Virus record (IMG/VR): IMGVR_UViG_3300025012_000031
Span: 91,099 to 155,098 of that record
Length of the DNA stretch: 64,000 bases
From: a virus
Direction: 5' to 3' (one strand)
Shown: positions 54 to 61,543 of the stretch, piece by piece
Layout: the number at the start of each line of letters is the position of its first letter
Numbering within the stretch: position 1 is the stretch's first letter
Notes under the pieces: model-generated
The model's database searches: none
What the model was told of the DNA's origin: nothing
The model's input: the letters and a program-made list of their open reading frames with translations, nothing else
Program-made: the position numbers and the translations under genes

Positions 54-127
54 TGGAGGGAAGTATGGGGTTCGAACCCATGCTCGCCGGGTCACGGCCG
101 ACGCGACTACCATTATCTTAACGACCC
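54..127 (-). tRNA. tRNA, anticodon GTG (probable His)
   Basis: The T arm is perfect (ATGGG/CCCAT around TTCGAAC). The D arm carries GG, and a five-pair anticodon stem encloses CCGTGAC, giving anticodon GTG. A 3' CCA is encoded after a T discriminator. Oddities are C instead of U at position 33, two mismatches in the acceptor stem, and T rather than the usual C73 of tRNA-His. The identity is therefore tentative, though the fold is clear. Confidence 0.6.
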
Positions 128-132
128 ATTAA

Positions 133-348
133 TCAAGATTCTTTTAATACTTCAAGATGCTTACGAATATACCGCATGAACAACATCGCCTTTTCTTCAG
201 CGGGGAATGTTGCCTCACCGCAATCTTCAATCGGTACAGGGAACTCGAAGTTCTTATCAATGACTTCATAGTAAAGATTACCAGCCCGATAGCGAACAAA
301 ACGAACGACTGTCCCTTTAACTAAATCTTTAATATTCAATTCACTCAT
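133..348 (-). CDS. small hypothetical protein, 71 aa
   Basis: Not recognised. This is a 71-residue soluble, mixed-charge protein (FPVPIEDCGEATFPAEEKA in the middle, a basic helix RYIRKHLE near the end). Its start overlaps the stop of the 55-residue gene upstream by eight bases, so the two are probably translationally coupled. They sit between two tRNA genes, as is common in phage tRNA clusters. Confidence 0.75.
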   Translation of the reverse strand: MSELNIKDLVKGTVVRFVRYRAGNLYYEVIDKNFEFPVPIEDCGEATFPAEEKAMLFMRYIRKHLEVLKES

Positions 349-508
349 CTTTGAAATATCCTTCCGTGTCGCTCATTGCATCGCTATAGCCGCTCCAATT
401 GTCAACACCATATACTTCAAGACGATCAAGGGTATCAGCACTCTTCAGTAGGCTGTTATATTCTTTCTCAGTGATGGTTACCATTTTTTCTTCTGTTGGT
501 TGAGACAT
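341..508 (-). CDS. small hypothetical protein, 55 aa
   Basis: A short frame with a strong ribosome site (AAAGGAGA, eight bases before ATG). The acidic product contains TITEKEYNSLLKSADTLDRL, a helical pattern often seen in tiny phage proteins. Its 3' end overlaps the next gene. No function can be assigned. Confidence 0.7.
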   Translation of the reverse strand: MSQPTEEKMVTITEKEYNSLLKSADTLDRLEVYGVDNWSGYSDAMSDTEGYFKDE

Positions 509-531
509 TGAAGTCTCCTTTCATTACGTGG

Positions 532-620
532 TGGTTCTAGGACGGAATTGAACCTCTTGCCCATACGGGGAATGTTCTACAGACATCCGGCAGCACCAGC
601 TACCCTTACTTGCAAGAACC
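532..620 (-). tRNA. degenerate tRNA-like gene, anticodon GTA
   Basis: The ends pair (GGTTCT with AGAACC). A six-pair stem encloses CTGTAGA (anticodon GTA, Tyr), and a long variable arm CCC...GGG fits a class II tRNA-Tyr. The T arm is poor, with at least one clear mismatch, and the D-arm region can fold as an alternative hairpin. A cleaner tRNA-Tyr with the same anticodon lies at 960-1045, so this may be a decaying second copy. Confidence 0.5.
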
Positions 621-630
621 ATAAGTTATA

Positions 631-783
631 TTACTTCCAACCGTAAAGATCTTTTCCCTGGTACATCCAACGGTGTACCTTCTTTTCGTCGTGTAGTCGA
701 CGTGATCTTTCCTGTGCAGCTCCGAAGTGATGATAGAAAATTCGTTCTTCGTCAAACTCAATTATTGATATCTCCGGCATCAT
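631..783 (-). CDS. small hypothetical protein, 50 aa
   Basis: Two adjacent ATG codons (778-783) follow the ribosome site AAAGGAAAG. The product is short and charged, ending KVHRWMYQGKDLYGWK, with many aromatic and basic residues. It lies between two tRNA genes. Function unknown; codon structure and ribosome site support it as real. Confidence 0.65.
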   Translation of the reverse strand: MMPEISIIEFDEERIFYHHFGAAQERSRRLHDEKKVHRWMYQGKDLYGWK

Positions 784-801
784 TCTTTCCTTTACTTAAT
801 A

Positions 802-946
802 TGGTGGCCCGCGTTGGAATCGAACCAACATTCCCGGAGACAGTGTCCTCAGAGTCGCGACTAAGAGTTATGATATACCGACATACGTTTCGACATACCA
901 CAAGAAACACCATCCACATGGTCTTAACCGATTAGATGAGCAGGCC
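802..946 (-). tRNA. tRNA-like gene with an internal insertion of about 65-70 bases
   Basis: The 5' end GGCCTGC (940-946) pairs with the 3' end GCGGGCC (806-812), followed by A and an encoded CCA. The 5' half continues with a D arm (ATCT...GG...AGAC), and the 3' half has a perfect T arm (GTTGG TTCGATT CCAAC). The two halves lie 145 bases apart end to end, far more than a class I or II tRNA. The interior holds no standard anticodon arm that I could find, only a GTATGTC direct repeat and small hairpins. It could be a tRNA with a short insertion or intron-like segment, or a fusion of two decayed genes. Confidence 0.5.
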
Positions 947-959
947 GTGCTTTAATTTT

Positions 960-1045
960 TGGTGTACGTAACAGGAGTCGAACCTGTTCAGCATTAAGCA
1001 ACTGGGTTACAGCCAGTCCCGGCTCTCCAACTCCGGCGTACGCAC
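960..1045 (-). tRNA. tRNA-Tyr (GTA)
   Basis: Complete class II tRNA. The acceptor GTGCGTA pairs with TACGTAC (one G-T) and is followed by A and an encoded CCA. The D stem CCGG/CCGG, anticodon stem ACTGG/CCAGT with loop CTGTAAC (anticodon GTA), a variable arm and the T stem ACAGG/CCTGT are all intact. Confidence 0.93.
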
Positions 1046-1054
1046 ATATAATTT

Positions 1055-1171
1055 TTATCCGTTGGTCGTTGGTCCATAACAAATCGGACAAATGACAGTC
1101 TTGTTATGATGACCGACTTTAAGCCGAAATGAACCGTGTACTTTACAAATTCGTTTGACTTCTATCTTCAT
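1055..1171 (-). CDS. tiny zinc-ribbon-like protein, 38 aa
   Basis: ATG at 1169-1171 with AGGAG eleven bases upstream. The 38-residue product has two metal-ligand pairs (ICKVHG near the start, CPICYG near the end), a C-x2-H / C-x2-C layout typical of small phage zinc-binding proteins. No specific role can be given. It lies between tRNA-Phe and tRNA-Tyr. Confidence 0.65.
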   Translation of the reverse strand: MKIEVKRICKVHGSFRLKVGHHNKTVICPICYGPTTNG

Positions 1172-1187
1172 TATTCATTCTCCTAAT

Positions 1188-1263
1188 TGGTCGAGTCTCG
1201 GGGTTTCGATCCCCGCTCTACTGCTTTTCAGACAGTTGCTTTCACCAGATTAGCTTAGACCCG
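1188..1263 (-). tRNA. tRNA-Phe (GAA)
   Basis: The acceptor CGGGTCT pairs with AGACTCG and is followed by A and an encoded CCA. The D arm is GCT...AGC. The anticodon stem ACTGT/GCAGT encloses CTGAAAA, giving anticodon GAA. The T arm CGGGG ATCGAAA CCCCG is perfect in the stem but has A at the first loop position. A first base of C rather than G is unusual. Confidence 0.85.
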
Positions 1264-1276
1264 ATTGTGTTGTGCT

Positions 1277-1366
1277 TTATCCAACTATTGATTTGAATGC
1301 CCATGCAAATGTTAAAACACCCACGAGAATAATGATAAATTGAACTGCTCTATATTGATGTTTCAT
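1277..1366 (-). CDS. single-span membrane miniprotein, 29 aa
   Basis: The start codon overlaps the stop of the upstream 69-residue gene (TAATG), so translation is coupled. About nineteen residues (FIIILVGVLTFAWAF) form one transmembrane helix, preceded by the basic residues KHQYR. Small single-pass phage membrane proteins of this kind often act on the host envelope, but no specific function is visible. Confidence 0.6.
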   Translation of the reverse strand: MKHQYRAVQFIIILVGVLTFAWAFKSIVG

Positions 1367-1575
1367 TACTTCTTATCCGTTGCATCGAGTTTTCTCTTTT
1401 GATATTTCCCGCAACATTTACATGTGCGATCCTCATATACAGATGTACGAATAATCGTTTCCCACCCAAAATGAAGTGGTACTGTTGTAGAAAACTTTGA
1501 CCACTTCTCCCAGTCATGGAAGAGGCGCCCTTCAAGACAACGGGCAAAGACTTTAAATATTCCTCTGAGTTTCAT
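1366..1575 (-). CDS. small Cys-containing protein, 69 aa
   Basis: ATG at 1573-1575 with AAAAGGAA upstream. The protein ends with CKCCGKYQKRK, a half zinc-ribbon with a basic tail. The middle reads HDWEKWSKF, a pattern I recall from small phage proteins of unknown role. It is coupled to the membrane miniprotein downstream through TAATG. Confidence 0.75.
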   Translation of the reverse strand: MKLRGIFKVFARCLEGRLFHDWEKWSKFSTTVPLHFGWETIIRTSVYEDRTCKCCGKYQKRKLDATDKK

Positions 1576-1599
1576 TCGTTTATTCCTTTTCTTTATGAG

Positions 1600-1672
1600 C
1601 GAGAATGACGGGATTCGAACCCGCGCTACAGGAGTGACAATCCTGCGTGCTAACCGCTAACACTACATCCCC
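1600..1672 (-). tRNA. tRNA-Asp (GTC)
   Basis: The acceptor GGGGATG/CATTCTC carries two G-T pairs and the discriminator is G73, as expected for Asp. The D arm is GTGTTAGCGGTTAGCAC. The anticodon stem CAGGA/TCCTG encloses TTGTCAC (anticodon GTC), and the T arm GCGGG TTCGAAT CCCGT has one mismatch at its base. CCA is not encoded and would be added after transcription, possibly by the phage enzyme at 33436. Confidence 0.92.
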
Positions 1673-1681
1673 GTGTAAATT

Positions 1682-1822
1682 TTAATCTGCCTCTTTAAGA
1701 AAGACCACAACTATTTCTGCGGCCAATCCTGTAGCAAATGATCCCGATTCTTCATGACGAATCTCAAACGGTGATTCGCATTCGATGATCCAACCATGTC
1801 TTGCTAAAAGTTCTTCGGTCAT
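1682..1822 (-). CDS. small hypothetical protein, 46 aa
   Basis: ATG preceded by GAGG at a spacing of eight bases. The product is short and acidic with a hydrophobic C-terminal stretch (TGLAAEIVVVFLKEAD). It lies between tRNA-Pro and tRNA-Asp. Not recognised. Confidence 0.6.
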   Translation of the reverse strand: MTEELLARHGWIIECESPFEIRHEESGSFATGLAAEIVVVFLKEAD

Positions 1823-1844
1823 TTGTTTACCTCATTTGAAAAAT

Positions 1845-1921
1845 TGGTCTATGTGGAGAGATTTGAACTCCCGTCCTCCTGCGTCCAAGGCAGGCCGTCT
1901 ACCAGGCTGACTTACACATAG
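1845..1921 (-). tRNA. tRNA, anticodon TGG (Pro)
   Basis: A perfect seven-pair acceptor (CTATGTG/CACATAG) is followed by A and an encoded CCA. The anticodon stem CCTGC/GCAGG encloses CTTGGAC (anticodon TGG). The T arm is GGGAG TTCAAAT CTCTC. Position 37 is A rather than the G usual in tRNA-Pro. A second TGG tRNA is at 2112-2186. Confidence 0.85.
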
Positions 1922-1935
1922 ATGATGAACATTAG

Positions 1936-2008
1936 CGAGCGCGACGGGATTCGAACCCGCAACAGTCTGATAGACAGTCAGACATCATTACCATTTGAAA
2001 CCGTGCCC
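1936..2008 (-). tRNA. second tRNA-Asp-like gene (GTC)
   Basis: The acceptor GGGCACG/CGCGCTC has one mismatch and the discriminator is G73. The anticodon stem TCTGA/TCAGA encloses CTGTCTA (anticodon GTC). The T arm matches that of the Asp gene at 1600. The T at position 37 and the weak D stem suggest a drifting duplicate. CCA is not encoded. Confidence 0.6.
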
Positions 2009-2042
2009 GTACTTTTTTCTTCCGTTCAATCAATGGTGAAGT

Positions 2043-2071
2043 ATTATACAAAATCTTCCTCACTTTGTCAA
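2043..2071 (-). promoter_or_regulatory. consensus sigma-70 promoter inside the tRNA cluster
   Basis: On the minus strand this reads TTGACA, 17 bases, TATAAT, a perfect match to both hexamers. It lies in the gap between tRNA-Pro (2112) and the Asp-like tRNA (1936) and would drive the rest of the tRNA cluster towards position 1. Confidence 0.85.
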
Positions 2072-2111
2072 ACAAAATCTTCACAGTACATCATTTTTAT
2101 TTCAAAGAACT

Positions 2112-2186
2112 TGGTCGGGATGACAGGATTCGAACCTGCATGGCCTCCGCCCCAAACGGAGTGACTGACCGTTAGCCTACATCCCG
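2112..2186 (-). tRNA. tRNA-Pro (TGG)
   Basis: Perfect acceptor CGGGATG/CATCCCG followed by A and an encoded CCA. The D arm is GGCTAACGGTCAGTC. The anticodon stem CTCCG/CGGAG encloses TTTGGGG (anticodon TGG, G37), and the T arm is GCAGG TTCGAAT CCTGT. C at position 1 is the usual state in bacterial tRNA-Pro. Confidence 0.93.
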
Positions 2187-5966: not shown

Positions 5967-6127
5967 TGTCTCTTCCTCTTCCGCTTTCTTTCAATTGAAT
6001 CTTTTGATGATATGTAGAAATCAGGAGCTTTATGTTCAACCCACTCGATGAATTTTTGAATGTCAGGGTGTTCTTTGATTCTTTCCCATGTATGATAGTA
6101 GTTATGGAGTTCTCTCCCAATCTCGTT
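5963..6127 (-). pseudogene. C-terminal fragment of an HNH-family phage protein split by a HEG
   Basis: The minus frame reads NEIGRELHNYYHTWERIKEH... and ends PDFYISSKDSIERKRKRKRQ. This matches, from memory, the C-terminal half of small phage HNH proteins (pattern EL...Y.T.E.LK.HP.I.KFV.WV..KPPEFY). It has no start codon of its own and an upstream stop (TGA) closes the frame. The matching N-terminal half is at 7099-7239, on the other side of the EDxHD endonuclease gene. Confidence 0.7.
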
Positions 6128-7010
6128 CCCAAATACTCACTACATTAAAGCCCTCCTGTTTAAAGGAGTTTTCATATTCTATTGTTTCTTTATAAAGTAT
6201 CCCAGCCGTCTTACCAACACGCATATTGAGGAAGTCTGATTCATAAACTTCTGGGTTACCATGCCAATAATCACCATGAAAAAGATAAATCGTATTCGTG
6301 TTCGGATCAAAACCATCGACGATCCTAACCCTATCATTTATTGTAAATTTTACTTGTCTATGACCTTTATCAAATGGTATGCCGATCTCGGACAACCAAA
6401 TATCTTCTTTTTTCTGTTCACATATAAAACACCCAACCCGCAAATGATCCTTTGGTGTTATTTCTATTATTCCATGTTGTTCGCATATCAACTGAATCGA
6501 TGTATTGCAGTCTTTATATTCAACCAACTCATATGAAAATTTAGTCAAAAATTTCTTTCTTGACGCCTTAATGAAATTAGTTAATCTAAAATTTTTATTT
6601 TCTTCAACCGAGCATTTTTTACATCCACCACTATCAAATTGAAGATGGTGTTGCGCCTTATTTAATTTAAATTTTCCATGTTTTTTACAAACTAAAATTA
6701 TTGGTTTAGTGATCCCCTCGTAATTTTCTATTTGTGTATAATCAAAAGATGAAAACTTCAGTTTCCCCCTATTGATAAATTCTTGTTTATCTAAAGCGCG
6801 ATTCTTTGATTGTTTAAGTTGTCCGCAGTGCGGACAATCCCAACGTCTTTCTATATGATGTCTTGCTATCTGTTTGAAATCACCGTGTTCTTTACACCCA
6901 ATCGAAACGTGTCCACACCAACTATAATAATTATCTTTGTTATACGAATACTTGTCACCGTGAACTTCAATTGCCCGTTTTTTAAAAGTTTCAAATGTAA
7001 TCTTTTCCAT
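6102..7010 (-). CDS. homing endonuclease, EDxHD (VSR-like, I-Bth0305I type)
   Basis: 302 residues from the ATG with GGAGG upstream. The N-terminal two-thirds hold three Cys/His units (SIGCKEHGDF...CPHC; LVCKKHGKF...CKKC; LICEQHGII...CFIC), likely DNA-recognition zinc modules. The C-terminus has the VSR-like catalytic core: EIGIPF, RIVDGFDPNTN, FHGDYWHGNP, then VVSIWERDW. Its last codons overlap, in another frame, the target HNH gene it interrupts. A late-promoter box and a long hairpin sit at its start. Confidence 0.88.
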   Translation of the reverse strand: MEKITFETFKKRAIEVHGDKYSYNKDNYYSWCGHVSIGCKEHGDFKQIARHHIERRWDCPHCGQLKQSKNRALDKQEFINRGKLKFSSFDYTQIENYEGITKPIILVCKKHGKFKLNKAQHHLQFDSGGCKKCSVEENKNFRLTNFIKASRKKFLTKFSYELVEYKDCNTSIQLICEQHGIIEITPKDHLRVGCFICEQKKEDIWLSEIGIPFDKGHRQVKFTINDRVRIVDGFDPNTNTIYLFHGDYWHGNPEVYESDFLNMRVGKTAGILYKETIEYENSFKQEGFNVVSIWERDWERTP

Positions 7011-7011
7011 A

Positions 7012-7066
7012 CATACCTCCATTTGTCATCTATAAAATTATTTATAAAATGACATACAGAAGTATG
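7012..7066 (-). promoter_or_regulatory. late promoter inside an RBS-sequestering hairpin (HEG 6102)
   Basis: Arms 7049-7066 and 7012-7029 pair over 18 positions with one A-A mismatch and a few G-T pairs. The right arm contains the GGAGG ribosome site. The late box TATAAATA (7039-7046, minus) lies between the arms, so an RNA started there lacks the left arm and frees the ribosome site. Early read-through RNA would keep the hairpin. Confidence 0.75.
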
Positions 7067-11944: not shown

Positions 11945-13007
11945 TTTTGTATGTCTCGTCAGGCAAACTATTCAGCACGGATTTATTGAATGTAACCAAC
12001 TTCTTGTTACACCCATAAAGACATTTAGCCGACATCACCTTATGAACGCTGAATTTCTTTGCTCGGCGAAACACCGATTCTAACGGCCAATCAGCGATGT
12101 TATCACCGGTGTGAGATGTTCCGTCGCGATACAAGTGCGAGCAGTTAGCAACATCACCGTATTCATTCACGACGAGTTCTGACAACTGAAGATAACACGG
12201 AACATGGCGATTGTCTTCAAAGCGAACACCAGCCGTGAATGTAGTCTTGTCGTGAGAAGCATTAAACAAAAACTTTGATTCCCCATCTTCGTGTGCCTCG
12301 AATAGAAAATCAAGTTCTGGCTTGATGTCATTAAACAAATGATCGATGCTTTCTTCTGTGAATACGAATCGCTCGTTCGTTCCTTTGTATGCCGAAAAGA
12401 ATGCTGCATACAGATTCGGTAGCTCGTTATAATACATCTTAAGGAACGGAACAATGTGATCCAGATTCTCCCTGGTCATCGTATATGTAATAGAGGTGAT
12501 CGGACGAATATCTTCCGGTAATTTATTGATACGACGAAGATTTGTCAGGACACTATAGAATGATCCTTGTATACCCACCAACGAATCAAAGTAACCGGCA
12601 TCATGAGAATCAAGAGAAACTTTCAATCTCTTAATATAACGGAGTGTTTCCATCGGGATGAATGTGACAAGATTTGTGTTAAGATGAAACTGCACCGAGG
12701 GAAACATCCTTCCCAACCGAGCAATGTCACTATATAGCCAAGGAACACAGGAAGGTTCCCCACCGGTGATATGAAGAATACCCCCACCCATTTCATGATA
12801 TTCACGAACGAGTTCACTGAACAGACGCCGATCAAGACTCTTCGGGGAACGCTCTTCATTGCAGTAGCTGCACTTGAGATTACAAGCAGAAGTTATATGT
12901 AAAGATAATCTTCTAAGATTTGGAAGTTCGTTCTTCAATAGACTATCAATTGTCTCCCCTATTCGCATTTCAAATAAATCCCAATATTTCGCTCCCGGAT
13001 TGCTCAT
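11928..13007 (-). CDS. radical SAM protein with SPASM-like C-terminus
   Basis: 359 residues. The [4Fe-4S]-binding motif CNLKCSYC lies near residue 43, followed by HITGGEP (SAM-binding GGE) and a TIM-barrel pattern (FHLNTNL, RLKVSLDSHD). The C-terminal part has spaced Cys (VPCYLQLSELVVNEYGDVANCSHL and CLYGC), as in SPASM-type auxiliary cluster domains. Such enzymes often modify peptides or carbohydrates. The substrate is unknown. The N-terminus overlaps an HNH homing endonuclease gene, and a fossil of the same Cys motif lies upstream of that gene. Confidence 0.88.
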   Translation of the reverse strand: MSNPGAKYWDLFEMRIGETIDSLLKNELPNLRRLSLHITSACNLKCSYCNEERSPKSLDRRLFSELVREYHEMGGGILHITGGEPSCVPWLYSDIARLGRMFPSVQFHLNTNLVTFIPMETLRYIKRLKVSLDSHDAGYFDSLVGIQGSFYSVLTNLRRINKLPEDIRPITSITYTMTRENLDHIVPFLKMYYNELPNLYAAFFSAYKGTNERFVFTEESIDHLFNDIKPELDFLFEAHEDGESKFLFNASHDKTTFTAGVRFEDNRHVPCYLQLSELVVNEYGDVANCSHLYRDGTSHTGDNIADWPLESVFRRAKKFSVHKVMSAKCLYGCNKKLVTFNKSVLNSLPDETYKIDACN

Positions 13008-13824
13008 TTTCTAATTCCTTCCTTATTTTATTATTTCGTTTTGTCTCTGCTATTTTTCTTTTTGTTTCTTCTGTATGTTTTCTCCTAGGCCTATTTTTTA
13101 ATTTCATTCTTGTTTCTTCAGAAATTCCTGGCCTATTTTTTGCTGATTCTGATTGTTTTCTTTTTGTTTCTGGTGAAAATGTTTTTCCTATATTACTAAT
13201 TCCAATTTTCTTTCGATGTTCCTCCGTTAAACAAATACCCTTTGTAGACTTCCCCACCTTTTTCCCAACTTCCTTAAATTTTTCTTTCATAACATCAGTC
13301 ATGAATCTACCCAACACCCACCCGTTTTTTATTAGATCATCGATTTCTGTTAAATGCGCCGGGCGAGATATGACTCCATTATTCAACCAAGATGTTCCTT
13401 TATTCCCACCCGGATATGTATTTCTATCTCTATTTTTGTGAGACAGTTTTATTTTTTCTATATGATCATTTTTTAATTTGTCTGTACCATTTTTTTCTCT
13501 CGTTAATCTTTTCCTATTTTTACATTCGTCACTCTTTTGATATGTATTATATTGTTTTTTTAACCATTCATAATTTCTACTATTATATTTTTTGAAATTA
13601 CTCATCATCACGGCTGCACAACATAAACTAGAATTTTTATATATCTTTGCTAATAATAAATGACACACGAAATGTTCTCTTAATGTTAAATATGCAAAAT
13701 TATCTTCTATATCTGAACCACCGATACATCGTGGTAAAATATGATGTCTTTCGTATTTTACTTCGGATTTTATTCTATTAACACTATTTGAAATTATCAG
13801 CTCGTAAATTTTTGTGTAATTCAT
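12970..13824 (-). CDS. HNH homing endonuclease with NUMOD3 repeats
   Basis: 284 residues from the ATG preceded by AGGAG. The N-terminal HNH domain reads YERHHILPRCIGGSD ... NFAYLTLREHFVCHLLL. After a linker come NUMOD3-type units (TEEHRKKIGISNIGKTFS, SPETKRKQSESAKNR and HTEETKRKIAETKR), which bind DNA in many phage HEGs. Its 3' end overlaps the radical SAM gene by 38 bases. A late box and hairpin precede it. AT-rich relative to its neighbours, as expected of an invader. Confidence 0.9.
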   Translation of the reverse strand: MNYTKIYELIISNSVNRIKSEVKYERHHILPRCIGGSDIEDNFAYLTLREHFVCHLLLAKIYKNSSLCCAAVMMSNFKKYNSRNYEWLKKQYNTYQKSDECKNRKRLTREKNGTDKLKNDHIEKIKLSHKNRDRNTYPGGNKGTSWLNNGVISRPAHLTEIDDLIKNGWVLGRFMTDVMKEKFKEVGKKVGKSTKGICLTEEHRKKIGISNIGKTFSPETKRKQSESAKNRPGISEETRMKLKNRPRRKHTEETKRKIAETKRNNKIRKELENEQSGSEILGFI

Positions 13825-23623: not shown

Positions 23624-24814
23624 TTATGCAGATAGTGCCAATTGAAAAGTGTCTCTCAGCATCACCATGTAATTACGATCCTCGCACATGCTTTTCCCGG
23701 GGGAGTCAGAAAGTTTGGCCACGGGTTTTCCATCGCAGTTGACCATCTTCATTACGATAGATAGAGCTTTGCTTGAATCGAAGTCATTGGTCAGATTGGT
23801 GCCGATTCCGAAGACGATGGTTGGAAAGGCCAGACCGAGATGTTGATTATATTCGCCACAGCTAAACATAATCGACGATGCCGTCTCAACATCAAGTCCA
23901 TCACTGAAAATGAATGTCTTTGTGGAGGGATCAACACCAAGTTCAGCAAGACGATTAATCAGTGTCATATACCAAATCATGGTGTTTCCAGAATCATGGC
24001 GGAAGCCGCGGTATCGCTTGGCGTTTTCAACAGAGAGATCGCGACAAAATGCATCAATACCAACGATGTCTGTTAGAGCAACGGCGAGCTTATCGCCATA
24101 CTCATCGTACCAAACATTGAGGGCATTCTTCTGAAAGTCGATGAGTTTGGGAGAAAGAGCCTGATATGCCTGGAACCACTCGTGGGCTTGGGTACCTTTA
24201 CAGGGAATGCCGAGTTTCCAGGCGAGGTAGACGTTAGAGGTGCCACCAAAATTTTTCAGATTGTCTTTGAGATACGAAACGACCTCGTACTGCCAACGAC
24301 GTGAGCGGCGACGGCGGGTTCCCATCTCAATGATCGGCATACCAACCTCATTAGCATCGTTGATCTTTTCACGGAGGTTAAACATTGCACTGGTGTAATC
24401 GGGGTGGGGGTCCTCATTGCGGAAGTAAACCTCGTTAACGATGGCAAGAACCGGGACCTCAAAGAGGATCGTATTGACCCAATGACCTCGGATGCGGATA
24501 ACGATGTCATTCCAATCCCAGGAGATGAAAACCGTCTTCGGATCAAGCTGGAAGTCTTTGAGATAGTCAAGAAAGTCTTCAGCGAAGATATCCAAAGATC
24601 GAAGGTACTCAATTTCTTCGGACTTGAATTTCAATGCACAATACCATCTGATCTGATTCTCGATCAGCTCGATATATTTCGTCAGATTTACTCCTTCCGA
24701 CCGGCACTTAAATGCATAATCAACAATCGGATTTTCTGTCTGATGAAATGCTGCTTGCATCTGTGTGAGTTTGTATAAGTCATTATCTAACAACGAAGGT
24801 TCTAACATAAACAT
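23624..24814 (-). CDS. pncB: nicotinate phosphoribosyltransferase
   Basis: 396 residues, close to full length. Landmarks: DNDLYKLTQMQAAFHQ near the start, EMGTRRRRS, GTSNVYLAWKLGIPCKGTQAHEW, RGFRHDSGNTMIW, FSDGLDVETA and GIGTNLTND. It makes nicotinate mononucleotide from nicotinate and PRPP. Its first codons and ribosome site (GGAG) lie within the 3' end of a GIY-YIG HEG. An older start of the same gene survives upstream at 25487-25540. Confidence 0.95.
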   Translation of the reverse strand: MFMLEPSLLDNDLYKLTQMQAAFHQTENPIVDYAFKCRSEGVNLTKYIELIENQIRWYCALKFKSEEIEYLRSLDIFAEDFLDYLKDFQLDPKTVFISWDWNDIVIRIRGHWVNTILFEVPVLAIVNEVYFRNEDPHPDYTSAMFNLREKINDANEVGMPIIEMGTRRRRSRRWQYEVVSYLKDNLKNFGGTSNVYLAWKLGIPCKGTQAHEWFQAYQALSPKLIDFQKNALNVWYDEYGDKLAVALTDIVGIDAFCRDLSVENAKRYRGFRHDSGNTMIWYMTLINRLAELGVDPSTKTFIFSDGLDVETASSIMFSCGEYNQHLGLAFPTIVFGIGTNLTNDFDSSKALSIVMKMVNCDGKPVAKLSDSPGKSMCEDRNYMVMLRDTFQLALSA

Positions 24815-25443
24815 TTAATGATTCTCCATCCCTTATGTTTCTTATTGTTTGTTAACGTGCGTTGCATATGGGCACGATGAAGGTTATGTTCTCTACAAAA
24901 TGCATTCATTCCAGATGTTGTATTATACAAATTTCCGTCTTGATCTTCAACTAAATAATTCTTTATATTAATTTTTCCGGTTGATGTTGCACTACATTTT
25001 TTTCTTGTTTCATCTGTTGTTATTCTTGCCTTTCTAGCTATCGAAAGATTTGATTTATGTTCCTCTGAAAAGAGGACACCCATCTTCCCTTTACTTATAT
25101 TTTCGCGATGTTCTTTAGAAAACTTTCGACCGATTCTTTTCTCGGCCATCTTTCTTTGCATCTCTTCAGTGAATCCCGAAAAGCCGTCGCCGCCAATAGA
25201 TAAATTATATCCAACGTCTGCATTCCGAGAATTTAATTTCTCTATCCAAAATATCTCTCTTTGGTTTAATTCTTCAAAAGAAAAACATTCTTCGAGAATT
25301 TCTTTAGAAAAACTTTCTTTACCGTATTTCTTTATTGCATGTGATAACACAATACCAGAACCAAGATAATCTTTTCTCTTTGATGATTGTTTCCCAACAT
25401 AAATTTTCCCATTGATATTATTCGTCGTCTTATAAATGAACAT
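24802..25443 (-). CDS. GIY-YIG homing endonuclease with NUMOD3 motifs
   Basis: 213 residues. The N-terminal GIY-YIG-type domain has the IYKTTNNINGKIYVGKQ start, then LGSGIVLSHAIKKYG and the catalytic-Glu region REIFWIEKLNSR. Middle NUMOD3 units (FSKEHRENISKGKMGVLF, SEEHKSNLSIARKAR) and a C-terminal DNA-binding part (AFCREHNLHRAHM) follow. It sits inside the 5' end of pncB. The hairpin and late box at 25440-25476 control it. Confidence 0.92.
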   Translation of the reverse strand: MFIYKTTNNINGKIYVGKQSSKRKDYLGSGIVLSHAIKKYGKESFSKEILEECFSFEELNQREIFWIEKLNSRNADVGYNLSIGGDGFSGFTEEMQRKMAEKRIGRKFSKEHRENISKGKMGVLFSEEHKSNLSIARKARITTDETRKKCSATSTGKINIKNYLVEDQDGNLYNTTSGMNAFCREHNLHRAHMQRTLTNNKKHKGWRIIKCLC

Positions 25444-54177: not shown

Positions 54178-54213
54178 TTTTTCAAACAAATACCCCACTA
54201 CAAGGAGCACCAC

Positions 54214-54510
54214 ATGCCATCATACGTTTTTGTATGCGACCGGGAGGAGTGTAAGAATCCCGTCGAACGCATTGTGCCTATGCGAGATCATGACGAATTA
54301 AAGAAAAACATTCGTTGTGAAAAATGCGGAAGTACAATGTCTCAGGAAATACCAAACCAATTTCGTTTTAAATTAAAGGGCAATGGTTGGTCCGATCAAG
54401 AATATGGAATCACCGACATGGAGACCGATAAGAATCTTGACGGTGAGAAACGAATTGAAGAGATAGCAAAAGATTATGTCCGCGCTGATCGAGAAGCCAA
54501 CAGAAAATAA
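54214..54510 (+). CDS. FmdB-like small zinc-ribbon protein, 98 aa
   Basis: Starts MPSYVFVCDREECKNPVERIVPM, with a second pair CEKCGST, as in FmdB-type regulatory zinc ribbons. The remainder is charged. AAGGAG ribosome site. Role unknown. Confidence 0.75.
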   Translation: MPSYVFVCDREECKNPVERIVPMRDHDELKKNIRCEKCGSTMSQEIPNQFRFKLKGNGWSDQEYGITDMETDKNLDGEKRIEEIAKDYVRADREANRK

Positions 54511-54522
54511 TAGGAGCACTAC

Positions 54523-55737
54523 ATGAATTTGAATTTTTTTATTAATGAGTTTCAGCATGATATTTGGAGTGATCACTATCGGTTCAACGGTGAAACAATC
54601 GAAGGAATGATGTGGCGACTTGCTAGTGGTATTCTCCATGATGGCGGTCCCGTAATGCAGCAAGCATTATTTGATGCAATGATGTCCCGCCGCATCTCCT
54701 TTGGTGGTCGTGTTATTGCTAACACAAATACATCATACGGTAAAACGAACTCGTTCAACTGCTACGGTGCACAAAGAGCAAAAAAACCTTATGACTCTAT
54801 TCAGGGAATCTTCACCGATCTTCTGAATGCCGCGGAGATTTTGAAAACAGAAGGTGGGATCGGTTTTAACTTCAACCATATTCGGCCACGTGGTACACTC
54901 ATCAAAGGTGTACGTGTCGGGACCCCGGGTGTTGTTTCATTCATGGACATTTATAATGTCAGTGCAGACGTCATTACTCGTGGTGATTCCGGTGAATTAC
55001 ACCAAGATGACGGGAAACCAACAAAAAAGAAAATCCGCAAGGGTGCACAAATGGCGATGCTTGATTGCCGCCACCCCGAGATCATTGATTTCATCGAGGC
55101 CAAGAAGATTCCTGGTCGTCTGACGAAATTCAATATGTCAGTTATCGTCACCGATAAATTTATGGAAGCCGTCGCTGCCGATGATGACTGGGAACTATGG
55201 TTCCCCGATATCCGTTATGAAAAATATGACGAGCTGTGGGATGGTGATTTTGATAAATGGGAAGAGGCTGGACTTCCGAAATATGTTTACAAAACAATAA
55301 AGGCATGCGATCTCTGGGAACTTCTTCTCAAAAATACATATACACGCAATGAACCCGGTATCTATTTCATCGATAGCGCAAATCGTTTTAATAATCTCAT
55401 TTATTATCAGAAAGTAACCGGAACTAATCCCTGTGTTGTTGGGAACACCGTTGTTAAGACTGATGGTGGCGATATTACAATCCAAGAATTATGTGATCGT
55501 TATAAAGCTGGTGATAAATTTAAAGCATTAACAATGAACACCGAAACACTTTGTCTTGAATACGAAAACATCGTATTTGCTGATAAAACAAGAAATAACA
55601 CGGATGTTATTAAAATTGAGTTGGATGATGACATGATTCTTGAATTAACACCAGACCATAAAGTGTTTACGGAAAATCGCGGTTACGTCGAGGCGGCATT
55701 ATTAAACGATGACGATATTTTACTGCTTGTAGATTAA
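54523..55737 (+). CDS. nrdJ: ribonucleotide reductase (class II-like) N-half fused to N-intein
   Basis: 404 residues. Residues 1-303 are the N-terminal part of an adenosylcobalamin-type ribonucleotide reductase (RISFGGRVIAN, SFNCYGAQ, KTEGGIGFNFNHIRP, DCRHPEIIDFIEAKK, ending TGTNP). Residue 304 is Cys1 of an intein N-fragment (CVVGNTVVKTDGG) with block B TPDHKVF and the end ENRGYVEAALLNDDD. The intein fragment ends in a stop, so it must act in trans with the C-fragment at 56512. Similar to the NrdJ-type split inteins known from phage metagenomes. Confidence 0.93.
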   Translation: MNLNFFINEFQHDIWSDHYRFNGETIEGMMWRLASGILHDGGPVMQQALFDAMMSRRISFGGRVIANTNTSYGKTNSFNCYGAQRAKKPYDSIQGIFTDLLNAAEILKTEGGIGFNFNHIRPRGTLIKGVRVGTPGVVSFMDIYNVSADVITRGDSGELHQDDGKPTKKKIRKGAQMAMLDCRHPEIIDFIEAKKIPGRLTKFNMSVIVTDKFMEAVAADDDWELWFPDIRYEKYDELWDGDFDKWEEAGLPKYVYKTIKACDLWELLLKNTYTRNEPGIYFIDSANRFNNLIYYQKVTGTNPCVVGNTVVKTDGGDITIQELCDRYKAGDKFKALTMNTETLCLEYENIVFADKTRNNTDVIKIELDDDMILELTPDHKVFTENRGYVEAALLNDDDILLLVD

Positions 55738-55751
55738 ATATCAAAAAACCA

Positions 55752-55797
55752 CATGGATTTATAAATATTTCTAAAAAGGAGTATTTATGAATCCATG
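55752..55797 (+). promoter_or_regulatory. late promoter inside a start-codon hairpin (HEG 55787)
   Basis: Arms 55752-55767 and 55782-55797 pair over all 16 positions (one G-T). The right arm contains the ATG, and the AAAAGGAG ribosome site is in the loop. The late box TATAAATA (55760-55767) is part of the left arm, so late RNA starts in the loop and cannot form the hairpin. Confidence 0.8.
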
Positions 55798-56542
55798 GAA
55801 TAAAGATACACTTAGATTTGACTTTGATACAACACATAAAGATGAATTGATTAAATTTTATAAAAATGTAGTTTCGTATCCAAAGGCAAAAAGAAAACAG
55901 GCACTGGTTGATACAAAACGCCCCACAGAAGAAACGATAAAATATCTAAAAAGTGTATATGATGATGGATATGGTTTAAAAGTTATCGCTAGGGAAATCG
56001 GCCTTACATATTCTAGAATACGATCATTATTCGTCTATTTAGAAATAGATATCAGACGTGGTTATGACATATCGACATCAAAAACAGATGAATTCCGTAG
56101 TGCTCGTGTTAAAGGCAATAAGAATCCTTGGTATGATTGGACAAACAGAATACCAGAGATGCATGCATCTACGTCAAAAGGAATACAGGGATATTTTAAA
56201 AGGAAAAATGGCCAATTCGTATGGTTAAGATCTACATGGGAATTCATTTATGCAAAATGGATTGATGATAAAAACATTAATTGGGAGTTTGAAGGAGAAC
56301 ACTTTCATTTATCAAGCGGTGAAAGTTACCGCCCCGATTTTTCAATTTTTGATGATAATGGTCAACTTCTATACATCGTCGAGGTTAAGGGTTTTTTTAA
56401 GAATAGAATGTATAAAATTGATTTGATGAAGAAGGACTATCCTAACATTAAAATGATCGTTATACACGACATATCTAAATATTGTAAAAATTATCACGAG
56501 GAGCTTAAAATATGGAAACAGGAACGAATCCTGCTAAAGTAA
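55787..56542 (+). CDS. homing endonuclease, PD-(D/E)XK-like, in the split intein gap
   Basis: 251 residues. Middle: IAREIGLTYSRIRSLFVYLE (helix-turn-helix-like). C-terminal nuclease part: VWLRSTWEFIYAKWIDD, then YRPDFSIFDDNG and IVEVKGFF, giving the D ... E-x-K pattern. The gene lies exactly between the N- and C-intein halves of the reductase and overlaps the latter by 31 bases. It replaces the usual in-frame intein endonuclease by a freestanding one. Confidence 0.85.
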   Translation: MNPWNKDTLRFDFDTTHKDELIKFYKNVVSYPKAKRKQALVDTKRPTEETIKYLKSVYDDGYGLKVIAREIGLTYSRIRSLFVYLEIDIRRGYDISTSKTDEFRSARVKGNKNPWYDWTNRIPEMHASTSKGIQGYFKRKNGQFVWLRSTWEFIYAKWIDDKNINWEFEGEHFHLSSGESYRPDFSIFDDNGQLLYIVEVKGFFKNRMYKIDLMKKDYPNIKMIVIHDISKYCKNYHEELKIWKQERILLK

Positions 56543-58341
56543 TTAGAAAACGAATTAAAAGAATAACCGTCATTGAAAATCAGGATGTCTATGATATTCA
56601 AACAACAACAAATCATAACTTTTTTGCTAATAATATATTAGTTCATAATTGCGGAGAGATAGCAATGTTGGCTGATGCCGGTATTGTCGAGATTGACGGC
56701 GTCATCTATGATCACCTTGGTGATATCTGTAACCTCGGGCATATCAATGTACCAATGTACTATGATAAGAATAAAGGATTTGACTGGGAAACATATGCGG
56801 CCGATATTGCTCTCCTCGTCCGTTCACTTGACTCTATCATTGATGTTTCTGGTTATCCGCTCCCGGGAATCGAGGCATCGGCACAACTTCGCCGTAAGAT
56901 CGGTTGTGGTCTCCTCGGTTACGGTTCTCTGTTGATGATGATGGGTTTCAAGTATGGATCACGGGATGCAAACGCATTCACACAACAACTAATGGCAACA
57001 TATGCAAATGCGGCCTATCATGCATCGGCCATGCTTGCTAAGGAGAAAGGTTCATTTAAACTCTTTGATGTAGATCTAATTTTTAACGGTGGGTTCGTCA
57101 AAAATTCGGGCGTTCTTACAAAGAACACTCTTGATGCAATTCGTCATTATGGTCTTCGTAACTCCCAACTGCTAACCGCCGCGCCGACGGGAACTACGGG
57201 AATTCTTATGGGGCTTGTATCAGGTGGAATTGAGCCAGTCTTTGATCTTGACTACATTCGTTGGGTAACTATTACCTATAAGATACATGAGGAACTAAGA
57301 GGACTGGCTTACCCTGATGTGACAAAGGGTGAATGGTTTGAAACGAAAGACTTCGTTGCAGAAAAAGTTGGCGATGACGATGTACTGATGTCAACATGCC
57401 GCAATTATTACTTTGACAAAAATCGTGGTCTCGTCAAGAAGACGGAATGTATGGACTTTGGTTGGTTGTGGTGTAAAGAGAATCTTTCAGTTGAAGAGAT
57501 GGAAAGATATAAAGCCAATGGCGCATTCACGACGGCAATGGACCTCACCGTTGAAGAACACATTGACCCGTTTACCATCTTCTCCTCACACATCGATAAC
57601 TCTATTTCCAAGACTGTTAACCTTCGTGCTGATTATCCTTATGAAGAGTTTGACCAATTATTCCGTAAGATGTGGCGGGACGGCGTAAGGGGTATCACAA
57701 CCTACCGTGAAGGTACCATGATGTCGGTACTTGAAACGAAAAAGAGTAATGATGGAAGTTCAATCAAAATGCAACAGCATGAATTTTTTGATTCGTGGAA
57801 AGATCACCAGGATGGACATATTTTCCTTGATGATGTTTCGCTCCCAGATGAATATCCGATGAAGGGTTACAAGATCAAGTCCGAAGGTAAAAAGTGGTAT
57901 GTTTCGGCTGCATTCAAAGATCACGAAATGAAACGCCCCTTCGCTATCTTCGTACAGACAAATAACCGCGAGCCTGATGTCAATACCCATGCTTGTATTG
58001 AGGCGCTAACGGAAATTGCAAAGAATGCCGGTATTGCTCCACATATCATTGATGATAACGATTCAAAGATGATCGGTAACACAAATGTTACAAAGATCGC
58101 AAGGACGCTGAGCTTATTGCTTCGTCATAACATACCAATCATTGACATTATTAAAACTCTTGATACACTTGATCTACCGATCGGTTCTTTTATTTTCAGA
58201 ATCAAAAAATTCATTGCGAATTTTATCGATGAAGATGATCTGATGGCTGAAATGACATGTCCCGAATGCGGCGGTCATGAATTCAAAATGTCAGAGGGTT
58301 GTCCGATCTGTAAAACATGTAGTTGGACAAAGTGCGGTTAA
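56512..58341 (+). CDS. nrdJ: C-intein fused to ribonucleotide reductase C-half
   Basis: 609 residues. Residues 1-46 are the intein C-fragment, with block F VYDIQTTTNHNFFANN and block G ending in VHN. Residue 47, Cys+1, begins CGEIAML, the family's active-site NPCGE motif: the splice junction lies directly before the expected thiyl-radical Cys. The rest includes APTGTTGILMG and ends with a zinc-finger-like tail (CPECGGHEF, CPICKTCSW), as in class II enzymes. GAGGAG ribosome site. Needs trans-splicing for a whole 866-residue enzyme. Confidence 0.93.
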   Translation: METGTNPAKVIRKRIKRITVIENQDVYDIQTTTNHNFFANNILVHNCGEIAMLADAGIVEIDGVIYDHLGDICNLGHINVPMYYDKNKGFDWETYAADIALLVRSLDSIIDVSGYPLPGIEASAQLRRKIGCGLLGYGSLLMMMGFKYGSRDANAFTQQLMATYANAAYHASAMLAKEKGSFKLFDVDLIFNGGFVKNSGVLTKNTLDAIRHYGLRNSQLLTAAPTGTTGILMGLVSGGIEPVFDLDYIRWVTITYKIHEELRGLAYPDVTKGEWFETKDFVAEKVGDDDVLMSTCRNYYFDKNRGLVKKTECMDFGWLWCKENLSVEEMERYKANGAFTTAMDLTVEEHIDPFTIFSSHIDNSISKTVNLRADYPYEEFDQLFRKMWRDGVRGITTYREGTMMSVLETKKSNDGSSIKMQQHEFFDSWKDHQDGHIFLDDVSLPDEYPMKGYKIKSEGKKWYVSAAFKDHEMKRPFAIFVQTNNREPDVNTHACIEALTEIAKNAGIAPHIIDDNDSKMIGNTNVTKIARTLSLLLRHNIPIIDIIKTLDTLDLPIGSFIFRIKKFIANFIDEDDLMAEMTCPECGGHEFKMSEGCPICKTCSWTKCG

Positions 58342-58347
58342 CACAAC

Positions 58348-58379
58348 ACTGGGTGGTTCTGAATTCAGAACCACCCAGT
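58348..58379. terminator. perfect palindrome, probable terminator
   Basis: A 32-base fully self-complementary sequence (ACTGGGTGGTTCTGAA and its complement) seven bases after the reductase stop. The T-run is weak (TTCAATT), so it may also act as an RNA stability element. Confidence 0.65.
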
Positions 58380-58402
58380 TCAATTAAAGAAAGGTTAAAC
58401 TA

Positions 58403-58843
58403 ATGTCTGAAGAAATCGTTGTTAACCATCACTCAAAATTTAGCAAGTGTCCAACGGATGTATATGCCCTTGTATTATATGGTTATGCCGATCTTATGTC
58501 TAAGAATCTTGCCGACAAAGGATTAGTGATAGACATTAATGAGGTGATTTCCGCAACAATCGGAAATGAGGTTGTTGGTATCATGGTGTTCTTTGAAACA
58601 GAAGCTGATTATATTTGGATAAACTTGGCATATGTAAAAGAAGAACATAGGAACAAAGGCATCTACAAAGCAATGCTCGGTTGTTTGAATGAAGAAGCGC
58701 GGTCCCGGGATATTAAATCACTTCGCTCTGGTACTGGGATAGAAAATGAAGTGATGATTGTTGTTAAAGAGAAAGTCGGGTTTGTTAAAACATACATCAT
58801 GCATGAATATAAAATTGAGGATGTCGATCAATGCGAAAAATAA
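58403..58843 (+). CDS. GNAT-family acetyltransferase
   Basis: 146 residues. The acetyl-CoA motif YVKEEHRNKGIYKAML (R/Q-x2-G-x-G/Y type) is clear, with a preceding strand INLAYV. Substrate unknown. Its end overlaps the next gene by 13 bases. Confidence 0.8.
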   Translation: MSEEIVVNHHSKFSKCPTDVYALVLYGYADLMSKNLADKGLVIDINEVISATIGNEVVGIMVFFETEADYIWINLAYVKEEHRNKGIYKAMLGCLNEEARSRDIKSLRSGTGIENEVMIVVKEKVGFVKTYIMHEYKIEDVDQCEK

Positions 58844-60540: not shown

Positions 60541-60606
60541 ATAAGTGCACGATCGTGTATACTTTTTATAAATAAAATAAAAGCCAATCACAGGAGATGC
60601 ACTTAT
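60541..60606 (+). promoter_or_regulatory. late promoter between arms of a start-codon hairpin (HEG 60605)
   Basis: ATAAGTGCA (60541-60549) pairs with TGCACTTAT (60598-60606), which includes part of the start codon and lies just after the AGGAG site. The late box TATAAATA (60567-60574) lies between the arms, so late RNA would lack the left arm. Confidence 0.7.
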
Positions 60607-61543
60607 GATTTTAACGGAGCTAGAAATTTGTAAAGATAGAAGAGGATGGCGTTCAAAAGATGGTTTCAGGGGAATGCAGCTCATTGACGTGTGTTGCGAC
60701 AAATGTAAACATGTTTTTAATTCTTCATATAATTGTGTAAGAAATAATAGGGAAAAACATCATAAGGATTTGTGTGGTGGTTGTCGAAGTGCAGCCGCCA
60801 ATATAGCGAATTCATCAAGGCGTAAAGGGAAAACATTTGAAGAAATTCTCGGCACAGAGAAAGCAAATAAGGCAAGGGAAAAACTAAAATTGTATGTTGG
60901 TGAAAGGGCCTCAAATTTTGGGGGGAAATTTAACGGCCCCGGACAACATATTGCAAACGCAAAACGCATAGGAAAAACATATGATGAACAATATGGAAAA
61001 GAAAAGGGGGATTTAATAAAGAAGAAGTTGTCTCGATGCGGAGAAAAAAATCATATGTTTGGTAAAGCCGCCCCGGTTGGTTCTGGTCGAGGTATATCCG
61101 GAATGTATGAGGGTTTTCATTTTCGAAGCACTCTTGAATTGACATTCATCAAACATCTTGTTACAATAAAGATTCCGTTTGTTTCTGGGGAGTCTAAGGA
61201 ATATCGAGTTGAATATGAAAAAGATGGTTGTAAGAGAAACTACTACCCGGATTATGTCTTGGGTACGGGGGAGATTATAGAAATAAAACCATCACGATTA
61301 ATTAATTCGGATGATAATAAATTGAAATTCGCCGCAGCAATTAATTTATATAGGGAAAGATTTAAAGTTTTAACCGAAAAGGATTTTCCAACATACAAGA
61401 CAGAATTGGCTGAAGATTTTATTGCCGGAAGAATTAATTTAAGCGAGCATAATAAAGGAAGATTTGAAAAATATGTTGGACTACAAAAAAGGCATGAATT
61501 TTTTCAAGAAGAACAATCTGACCCCACGTCAAATACAAATTGA
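60605..61543 (+). CDS. homing endonuclease, PD-(D/E)XK-like with zinc module
   Basis: 312 residues. N-terminal DVCCDKCKHVFNSSYN ... CGGCRS zinc-ribbon, middle basic NUMOD-like part (GEKNHMFGKAAPVG), C-terminal nuclease: HFRSTLELTFIKHL, YYPDYVLGTG, IIEIKPSRL. The end shares layout with the HEG at 55787 (RST-x-E-F ... Y-x-P-D). Its 3' end overlaps the helicase gene by 71 bases. Upstream at 60524 an orphan ribosome site and ATG (MSN then stop) may be the old helicase start. Confidence 0.85.
   Translation: MILTELEICKDRRGWRSKDGFRGMQLIDVCCDKCKHVFNSSYNCVRNNREKHHKDLCGGCRSAAANIANSSRRKGKTFEEILGTEKANKAREKLKLYVGERASNFGGKFNGPGQHIANAKRIGKTYDEQYGKEKGDLIKKKLSRCGEKNHMFGKAAPVGSGRGISGMYEGFHFRSTLELTFIKHLVTIKIPFVSGESKEYRVEYEKDGCKRNYYPDYVLGTGEIIEIKPSRLINSDDNKLKFAAAINLYRERFKVLTEKDFPTYKTELAEDFIAGRINLSEHNKGRFEKYVGLQKRHEFFQEEQSDPTSNTN

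What the first reader, a model, noticed from the sequence alone, without database searches (positions are those of the whole stretch)
54523..58341. Ribonucleotide reductase split by a trans-splicing intein with a freestanding HEG in the gap
The N-half ends in an intein N-fragment with Cys1 and TPDH; the C-half begins with a 46-residue C-fragment ending VHN before Cys+1. Between them lies a complete PD-(D/E)XK-like HEG. This is the 'fractured gene' layout described for phage metagenome NrdJ and gp41 inteins. Cys+1 is in the NPCGE motif, so the radical Cys is also the splice nucleophile: no splicing, no enzyme.
Basis: partly seen in the sequence, partly recalled or inferred. Interest (0 to 1): 0.8.

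Follow-up and report, generated by a model that had tools for sequence, protein, structure and literature searches.

The report
Enzyme gene fractured by split intein
In a T4-like phage, a selfish DNA-cutting gene has cut the gene for the DNA-building enzyme ribonucleotide reductase in two, exactly at its catalytic cysteine, and the halves are very probably rejoined as proteins by a split intein; relatives show the same spot empty, holding an unbroken intein, split with the cutter, and split with only the cutter's remains.

Summary
54523-55737 is an N-half of a class II (B12-type) ribonucleotide reductase ending in a 101-aa intein N-fragment; 56512-58341 begins with a 46-aa intein C-fragment and carries the rest. 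The junction is NP|CGE; Cys+1 aligns with Cys322 of T. maritima NrdJ, the thiyl-radical cysteine. Between the halves lies an intact PD-(D/E)XK endonuclease gene (55787-56542), distantly similar to T7 endonuclease I. This is a new member of the known 'fractured gene' kind. The intein is homologous to NrdJ-1 but sits one residue upstream of it.

New here: (1) the endonuclease start is buried in a 21-bp RNA hairpin whose 5' arm holds a T4-type late promoter, TATAAATA: the classic T4 homing-endonuclease switch, repeated in most relatives. (2) The same module occupies the same NP|C site in 18 analysed phage loci, across dimeric NrdJ and monomeric RTPR reductases. (3) That site shows the allelic states of a cycle: empty, contiguous mini-intein, LAGLIDADG intein, endonuclease-split, split with an endonuclease fossil. 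One pair of phages, 98.7% identical, differs by an 841-bp endonuclease block that changes a split intein into a contiguous one. Splicing and homing themselves are untested.

The parts
54523..55431 (+). N-extein of class II ribonucleotide reductase (303 aa, ends GTNP)
   Evidence: PF02867 2.4e-43, TIGR02504 NrdJ_Z 1.4e-48, 1xje alignment to residue 322
55432..55737 (+). Intein N-fragment (101 aa, Cys1, TPDH, own stop TAA)
   Evidence: TIGR01445 4.6e-10; NrdJ-1 8ubs E=1e-12; G+C 0.35
55752..55797 (+). RNA hairpin, 21-bp stem, pairing the Shine-Dalgarno and AUG of the endonuclease
   Evidence: MFE -25.3 kcal/mol, z -10.0, 0/200 shuffles; lost when the 5' arm is removed; 5th strongest of 233 gene starts in this phage
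55760..55767 (+). TATAAATA, T4-type late promoter -10 element inside the 5' arm of the hairpin, 19 nt before the endonuclease ATG
   Evidence: 6 of 16 split loci's gaps (this one included) carry it against 0.32 expected
55787..56542 (+). Free-standing PD-(D/E)XK homing endonuclease-like gene (251 aa; helical N-domain, nuclease domain ~130-250, YRPDF...EVKG)
   Evidence: 18-member alignment with invariant P183 D184 E199 K201; AF2 pLDDT 84.5; family profile to T7 endonuclease I 1m0d E=4e-4
56512..56542 (+). 31-nt overlap: 3' end of the endonuclease ORF holds the start codon of the C-half; its Shine-Dalgarno (GAGGAG) lies just upstream inside the endonuclease ORF
   Evidence: sequence; similar overlap in most split relatives
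56512..56649 (+). Intein C-fragment (46 aa, ends NNILVHN)
   Evidence: TIGR01443 over cut-off, PF14890 4e-9, 8ubs E=9e-8; G+C 0.27
56650..58341 (+). C-extein (563 aa) starting with the radical/nucleophile Cys+1 (CGEIAM); C-terminal Cys-rich tail
   Evidence: PF02867 1.1e-51, TIGR02504 1.5e-74, 1xje 5.3e-31

Best explanation
A homing endonuclease gene sits inside an intein that interrupts the radical-cysteine codon of a phage class II ribonucleotide reductase, so the reductase is made as two polypeptides. IntN and IntC associate and trans-splice: Cys1 attacks the NP-Cys1 bond, Cys+1 takes over the N-extein, Asn cyclises. This ligates the halves into an 866-residue reductase and restores NPCGE, whose Cys is also the enzyme's radical Cys. 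The C-half has its own Shine-Dalgarno and AUG inside the 3' end of the endonuclease gene. Early or middle transcripts running through the N-half fold the 21-bp hairpin and keep the endonuclease silent. Late transcripts starting inside the 5' arm lack it and make the endonuclease, which cuts intein-less or endonuclease-less alleles in co-infecting phages so that the module is copied in. At this site the element cycles between states: empty; intein; endonuclease gain, which fractures the intein; endonuclease decay, which leaves a plain split intein; and occasional deletion, which restores a contiguous intein. Shown: anatomy, homology, hairpin stability, allelic states. Inferred: splicing, cleavage, timing, direction of the events.
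For: Intein halves intact and homologous to the solved, fast NrdJ-1. Cys at the 1xje residue-322 position. Uninterrupted relatives L003-L006. Same NP|C position in 18 endonuclease-split loci in NrdJ and RTPR. The endonuclease tree joins RTPR and NrdJ hosts with 99/98 support, so the module has moved between gene families; endonuclease and intein distances correlate (Mantel r 0.50, 0/2000) more than either does with the host (0.33, 0.32). Endonuclease under purifying selection, dN/dS 0.11-0.25 in relatives. Hairpin and TATAAATA match the published T4 endonuclease control scheme (PMC2988022). L039/L040: 98.7% identical DNA, 841-bp block present or absent. All three endonuclease-less split alleles keep a fossil of the endonuclease C-terminus, E about 1e-8 to 1e-6. 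23 relatives of L039 with empty sites.
Against: No biochemical data: splicing, cleavage and target site are untested. IntN lacks close relatives of proven activity (NrdJ-1 is the nearest solved one). The fold search with the model gave only marginal restriction-fold hits, so the nuclease assignment rests on the motif and a weak T7 endonuclease I match. Hairpins are absent or weak in 6 of 18 loci. The direction of the L039/L040 difference is not settled by the tree.
Confidence: 0.88

Rival explanations
1. Genes-in-pieces without splicing: the endonuclease broke the gene and the two polypeptides assemble non-covalently into a working reductase, as in phage Aeh1 NrdA-a/NrdA-b with mobE; the intein halves are decaying remnants.
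For: Aeh1 precedent (PMC3653736). The endonuclease sits between two complete ORFs, each with its own start and stop.
Against: Both intein halves keep all splicing residues and, in relatives, evolve under strong constraint (IntN and IntC dN/dS about 0-0.13). Unspliced tails would sit on both sides of the radical Cys.
Confidence: 0.06
2. The gap is an RNA intron (group I or II), so a contiguous intein is made from spliced mRNA.
For: Phage reductase genes often hold group I introns with endonucleases (PMC3653736).
Against: No Rfam intron match at E<=1 in 54200-58500. IntN and IntC each have their own stop or start and end at the NrdJ-1 split position. The same-site contiguous mini-inteins have only short linkers.
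Confidence: 0.02
3. A dying locus: the reductase is a pseudogene fractured by a selfish gene, and the phage relies on the host enzyme.
For: Some phage reductase genes are degenerate (PMC3653736).
Against: All ORFs intact, catalytic motifs present, exteins still 51-63% identical to intact relatives. This is the only reductase gene match found in the record by PF02867. Identical in a second assembly. Exteins of close split alleles are under purifying selection (L041/L043 dN/dS 0.03-0.04).
Confidence: 0.04

Closest known systems
Fractured genes with split inteins and a free-standing endonuclease (Dassa et al. 2009, NAR 37:2560; paper not held, known here by citation and memory)
   Same: Conserved phage enzyme broken by a split intein with an endonuclease gene between the halves; reductases (7 nrdA, 2 nrdJ) among the reported cases (PMC3653736)
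   Different: Endonuclease is PD-(D/E)XK, T7 endonuclease I-like, not of the Vsr-like family that (from memory) was found in half of those loci; the allelic series and the near-isogenic with/without pair were found here
NrdJ-1 split intein (PDB 8ubs)
   Same: Homologous IntN (E=1e-12) and IntC (E=9e-8), same split position, same enzyme type
   Different: NrdJ-1 native exteins NPC/SEI with Ser+1; here NP|CGE with Cys+1, one residue upstream
T4 intron endonucleases and Aeh1 mobE control (PMC2988022)
   Same: Hairpin hides the ribosome binding site on early transcripts; a late promoter lies so that late transcripts lack the hairpin
   Different: Endonuclease is of another fold family and sits in a split intein, not in an intron or a plain break
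T7 endonuclease I / PD-(D/E)XK homing endonucleases (such as I-Ssp6803I)
   Same: PD...E-K catalytic motif; family profile matches T7 endonuclease I
   Different: Extra helical N-domain; weak similarity only; resolvase activity untested
Large contiguous inteins of bacterial reductases at the same site (L073, L076, L100, L104, L106, L108, L109)
   Same: Same NP|C insertion, VHN|CGE end
   Different: About 350-400 aa, contiguous, not split

Membership tests
Fractured-gene split intein | N-half ends with IntN (Cys1) and its own stop | tested here: met
Fractured-gene split intein | C-half starts with IntC ending in Asn followed by Cys/Ser/Thr | tested here: met
Fractured-gene split intein | Free-standing endonuclease gene between the halves | tested here: met
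Fractured-gene split intein | Intact uninterrupted host genes in relatives | tested here: met
   L003-L006; 23 empty sites near L039
Fractured-gene split intein | Trans-splicing | not testable with these tools
   needs protein work; residues intact
Vsr-like (EDxHD) homing endonuclease family | Vsr-type catalytic motif | tested here: not met
   YRPDF...EVKG PD-(D/E)XK motif invariant in 18 members; no Vsr/DUF559 match
PD-(D/E)XK nuclease, T7 endonuclease I-like | PD-(D/E)XK motif and restriction-type fold | tested here: met
   motif, strand/helix order in AF2 model, 1m0d E=4e-4 and PF05367 in 5 of 18 members; Foldseek hits only marginal
PD-(D/E)XK nuclease, T7 endonuclease I-like | Site-specific cleavage and homing | not testable with these tools
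   with/without alleles and gene-family jump are indirect support
NrdJ-1 intein allele | Insertion NPC|SEI with Ser+1 | tested here: not met
   NP|CGE, Cys+1; NrdJ-1 exteins from PMC13123727
Class II (B12) ribonucleotide reductase, dimeric NrdJ | NrdJ profile and radical Cys | tested here: met
   TIGR02504 165.9 + 251.6 bits on the two halves (cut-off 399.95 for a whole protein); Cys aligned to 1xje 322
Group I/II intron | Intron RNA structure | tested here: not met
T4-type late promoter plus RBS hairpin control | TATAAATA close upstream, hairpin pairing RBS/AUG that needs the 5' arm | tested here: met

The most novel reading that the evidence does not exclude
The NP|C radical-cysteine codon of phage class II reductases is a site where split inteins are made and unmade. 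An endonuclease enters an intein and fractures it. The endonuclease then decays but its last ~30 codons stay, because they hold the ribosome binding site and start of the C-half, leaving a plain split intein of the biotechnological kind. Deletions occasionally restore a contiguous mini-intein (L040, L023). The allelic series, the 98.7%-identical L039/L040 pair and the fossils L024, L034 and L051 would then be direct evidence for the proposed route by which split inteins arise, and show it to be reversible.
Probability: 0.65. Interest if true: 0.7.

Novelty: new member of a known kind. Interest (0 to 1): 0.55.

Why it matters
Split inteins are workhorse tools for protein ligation, but how a contiguous intein becomes split in nature is argued from scattered examples. 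One homologous site, in two reductase families and dozens of phages, now shows each state, including near-identical phages that differ mainly by the endonuclease block. That makes gain, decay and re-fusion directly testable in co-infection or co-expression. It also offers about 18 natural split inteins with Cys+1, relatives of one of the fastest known, and a clear case of a selfish gene placed where loss of splicing should disable an important enzyme.

Tried and rejected
Intron in the gap: no Rfam match. tblastn of the endonuclease in annotated phages: no match. Foldseek of the model against PDB: no confident hit; the top R2 retrotransposon hits are long poor alignments and were not used. Dassa 2009 and Carvajal-Vallejos 2012 are not in the library, so statements on them rest on citing papers or memory. 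Polarity of L039/L040: HEG identity to L041 (78%) is like that of IntN (77%) and above that of the exteins (66-70%), which does not single out a recent arrival; a short diverged tract beside the block points to recombination; the junction of L040 still reads LELKWWKQ in the endonuclease frame (weak), which favours loss in L040. Left open.
Full report
Observation. Two reading frames of one class II ribonucleotide reductase flank an endonuclease gene. N-half 54523-55737: 303-aa extein ending GTNP, then a 101-aa intein N-fragment CVVGNTVV...TPDHKVFTENRGYV...LLLVD*. C-half 56512-58341: METGTNPAK...NHNFFANNILVHN (46 aa), then CGEIAML... (563 aa). Joined exteins are 866 aa. Both fragments pass curated intein models and match the solved NrdJ-1 intein. 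The G+C drop begins and ends exactly at the splice junctions. Four contigs with 59-63% identical N-exteins have the uninterrupted NPCGE. A second metagenome carries the same allele with 1 mismatch in 13.2 kb. Rfam finds no intron.

The enzyme. Best family is adenosylcobalamin-dependent NrdJ (TIGR02504; the two halves together give 417 bits against a cut-off of 399.95). The Cys at the break aligns with residue 322 of T. maritima NrdJ (1xje), the thiyl-radical cysteine (established knowledge). The phage record is 155,098 bp with a T4-type Gp23 capsid protein (6e-39; about 25% identity to the nearest annotated phages), and this is its only reductase match.

Position relative to NrdJ-1. NrdJ-1 has native exteins NPC and SEI and an obligate Ser+1 (PMC13123727). 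Here the insertion is NP|CGE with Cys+1: a homologous intein, one residue upstream, a different allele.

The endonuclease. 18 homologues from split loci align with an invariant P-D-F...E-x-K core. AlphaFold gives a helical N-domain and a mixed C-domain (pLDDT 84.5). The family profile reaches T7 endonuclease I (4e-4). No Vsr-like signal was seen. dN/dS between close homologues is 0.11-0.25, so it is maintained as a protein. Homing is inferred from its distribution.

Control of the endonuclease. The 49 nt before its ATG hold TATAAATA (55760-55767) in the 5' arm of a 21-bp hairpin (55752-55797) that pairs both Shine-Dalgarno and AUG: -25.3 kcal/mol, z -10, none of 200 shuffles; without the 5' arm the fold is gone. 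It ranks 5th of 233 gene starts in this genome. In the phage, 19 of 23 TATAAATA sites are intergenic and most lie 16-46 nt before a gene; most of those genes are GIY-YIG, HNH or similar endonucleases. Among the 18 split loci, 12 have a hairpin over the endonuclease start that at most 2 of 100 shuffles equal, built from different sequences, and 6 of 16 non-redundant gaps have exact TATAAATA against 0.32 expected. This is the published scheme for I-TevI, segB and Aeh1 mobE (PMC2988022). The C-half has its own Shine-Dalgarno (GAGGAG) and AUG within the endonuclease ORF, so it need not wait for endonuclease translation (inference).

Allelic series at one site. With tblastn and profile scans of viral contigs the loci were classified. 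Endonuclease-split at NP|C: 18, including the window. Contiguous mini-intein at NP|C: L019, L025, L027, L029, L038, L040 (and L023, if its TGA codons are read as Trp). Split without endonuclease: L024, L034, L051. Empty: L003-L006 and 23 relatives of L039. In the lineage of L022 the same site also carries larger contiguous inteins, one with a LAGLIDADG domain (L155; also L150, L154). Bacterial reductases carry ~350-400 aa contiguous inteins there too. Hosts fall in two class II families, dimeric NrdJ and monomeric RTPR, separated by long branches on the host tree; the endonuclease tree mixes them with 99/98 support, so the module moves between gene families and lands on the same catalytic codon.

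Transitions. On the intein tree split and contiguous states need at least 6 changes, with well-supported mixed pairs L022/L025, L009/L029 and L039/L040. L039 and L040 are 98.7% identical over about 7 kb; L039 has an 841-bp block with the endonuclease and L040 reads straight through. Differences pile up only in a short stretch beside the block (90.7% over 75 bp against 99.6% in the rest of IntN), as expected from recombination at the site. L024, L034 and L051 keep the last ~30 codons of the endonuclease (1e-8 to 1e-6), the part that overlaps or precedes the C-half start. So the gap of a plain split intein can be the relic of an endonuclease.

What is shown and what is not. Shown by sequence: anatomy, homology, site, hairpin potential, allelic states, purifying selection. 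Inferred: trans-splicing, cleavage and homing, early/late timing, the direction of each transition. The fractured-gene kind is known (Dassa 2009, cited in PMC3653736 as 7 nrdA and 2 nrdJ cases; the original could not be read here), so the locus itself is a new member. The site-wide cycle is the part a specialist may find new.

Noticed in passing
L007 5929-11249: Close relative of the window's NrdJ with an empty NP|C site but two other interruptions: a break after FNMSVIITDRFM with a DUF559/Vsr-like endonuclease gene, and a split intein at SISK|TVNL with a PD-(D/E)XK endonuclease between the halves.
   Followed up: partly
L023 and L034: Two phage contigs whose reductase frames are open only if TGA is read as Trp (recoded genetic code); the intein frames show the same.
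   Followed up: partly
L014 977-3874, L015 4122-7025: The same PD-(D/E)XK endonuclease family as an in-frame domain inside a contiguous intein in the Walker A motif (GKG|C...HN|SGKD) of a probable terminase large subunit.
   Followed up: partly
L010 6113, L039 5460, L051 5460: RTPR genes with the NP|C intein carry a second intein start at KP[ES]G|C downstream, so one reductase can need two protein-splicing events.
   Followed up: no
L021 3538-4212: IntN of this split allele has a ~120-aa C-terminal extension of unknown nature before its stop.
   Followed up: no
window 60605-61543: Second endonuclease I-like ORF (312 aa) on the same strand with TATAAATA 30 nt before its start (60567) but only a weak hairpin.
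   Followed up: partly
window 6102-7022, 12970-13824, 24802-25443 and the rest of the 155-kb record: The phage is rich in GIY-YIG and HNH homing-endonuclease-like genes; exact TATAAATA sites occur mainly in front of them.
   Followed up: partly
window 54-2186 (-): Cluster of seven tRNA genes, with Asp and Pro each present twice.
   Followed up: no
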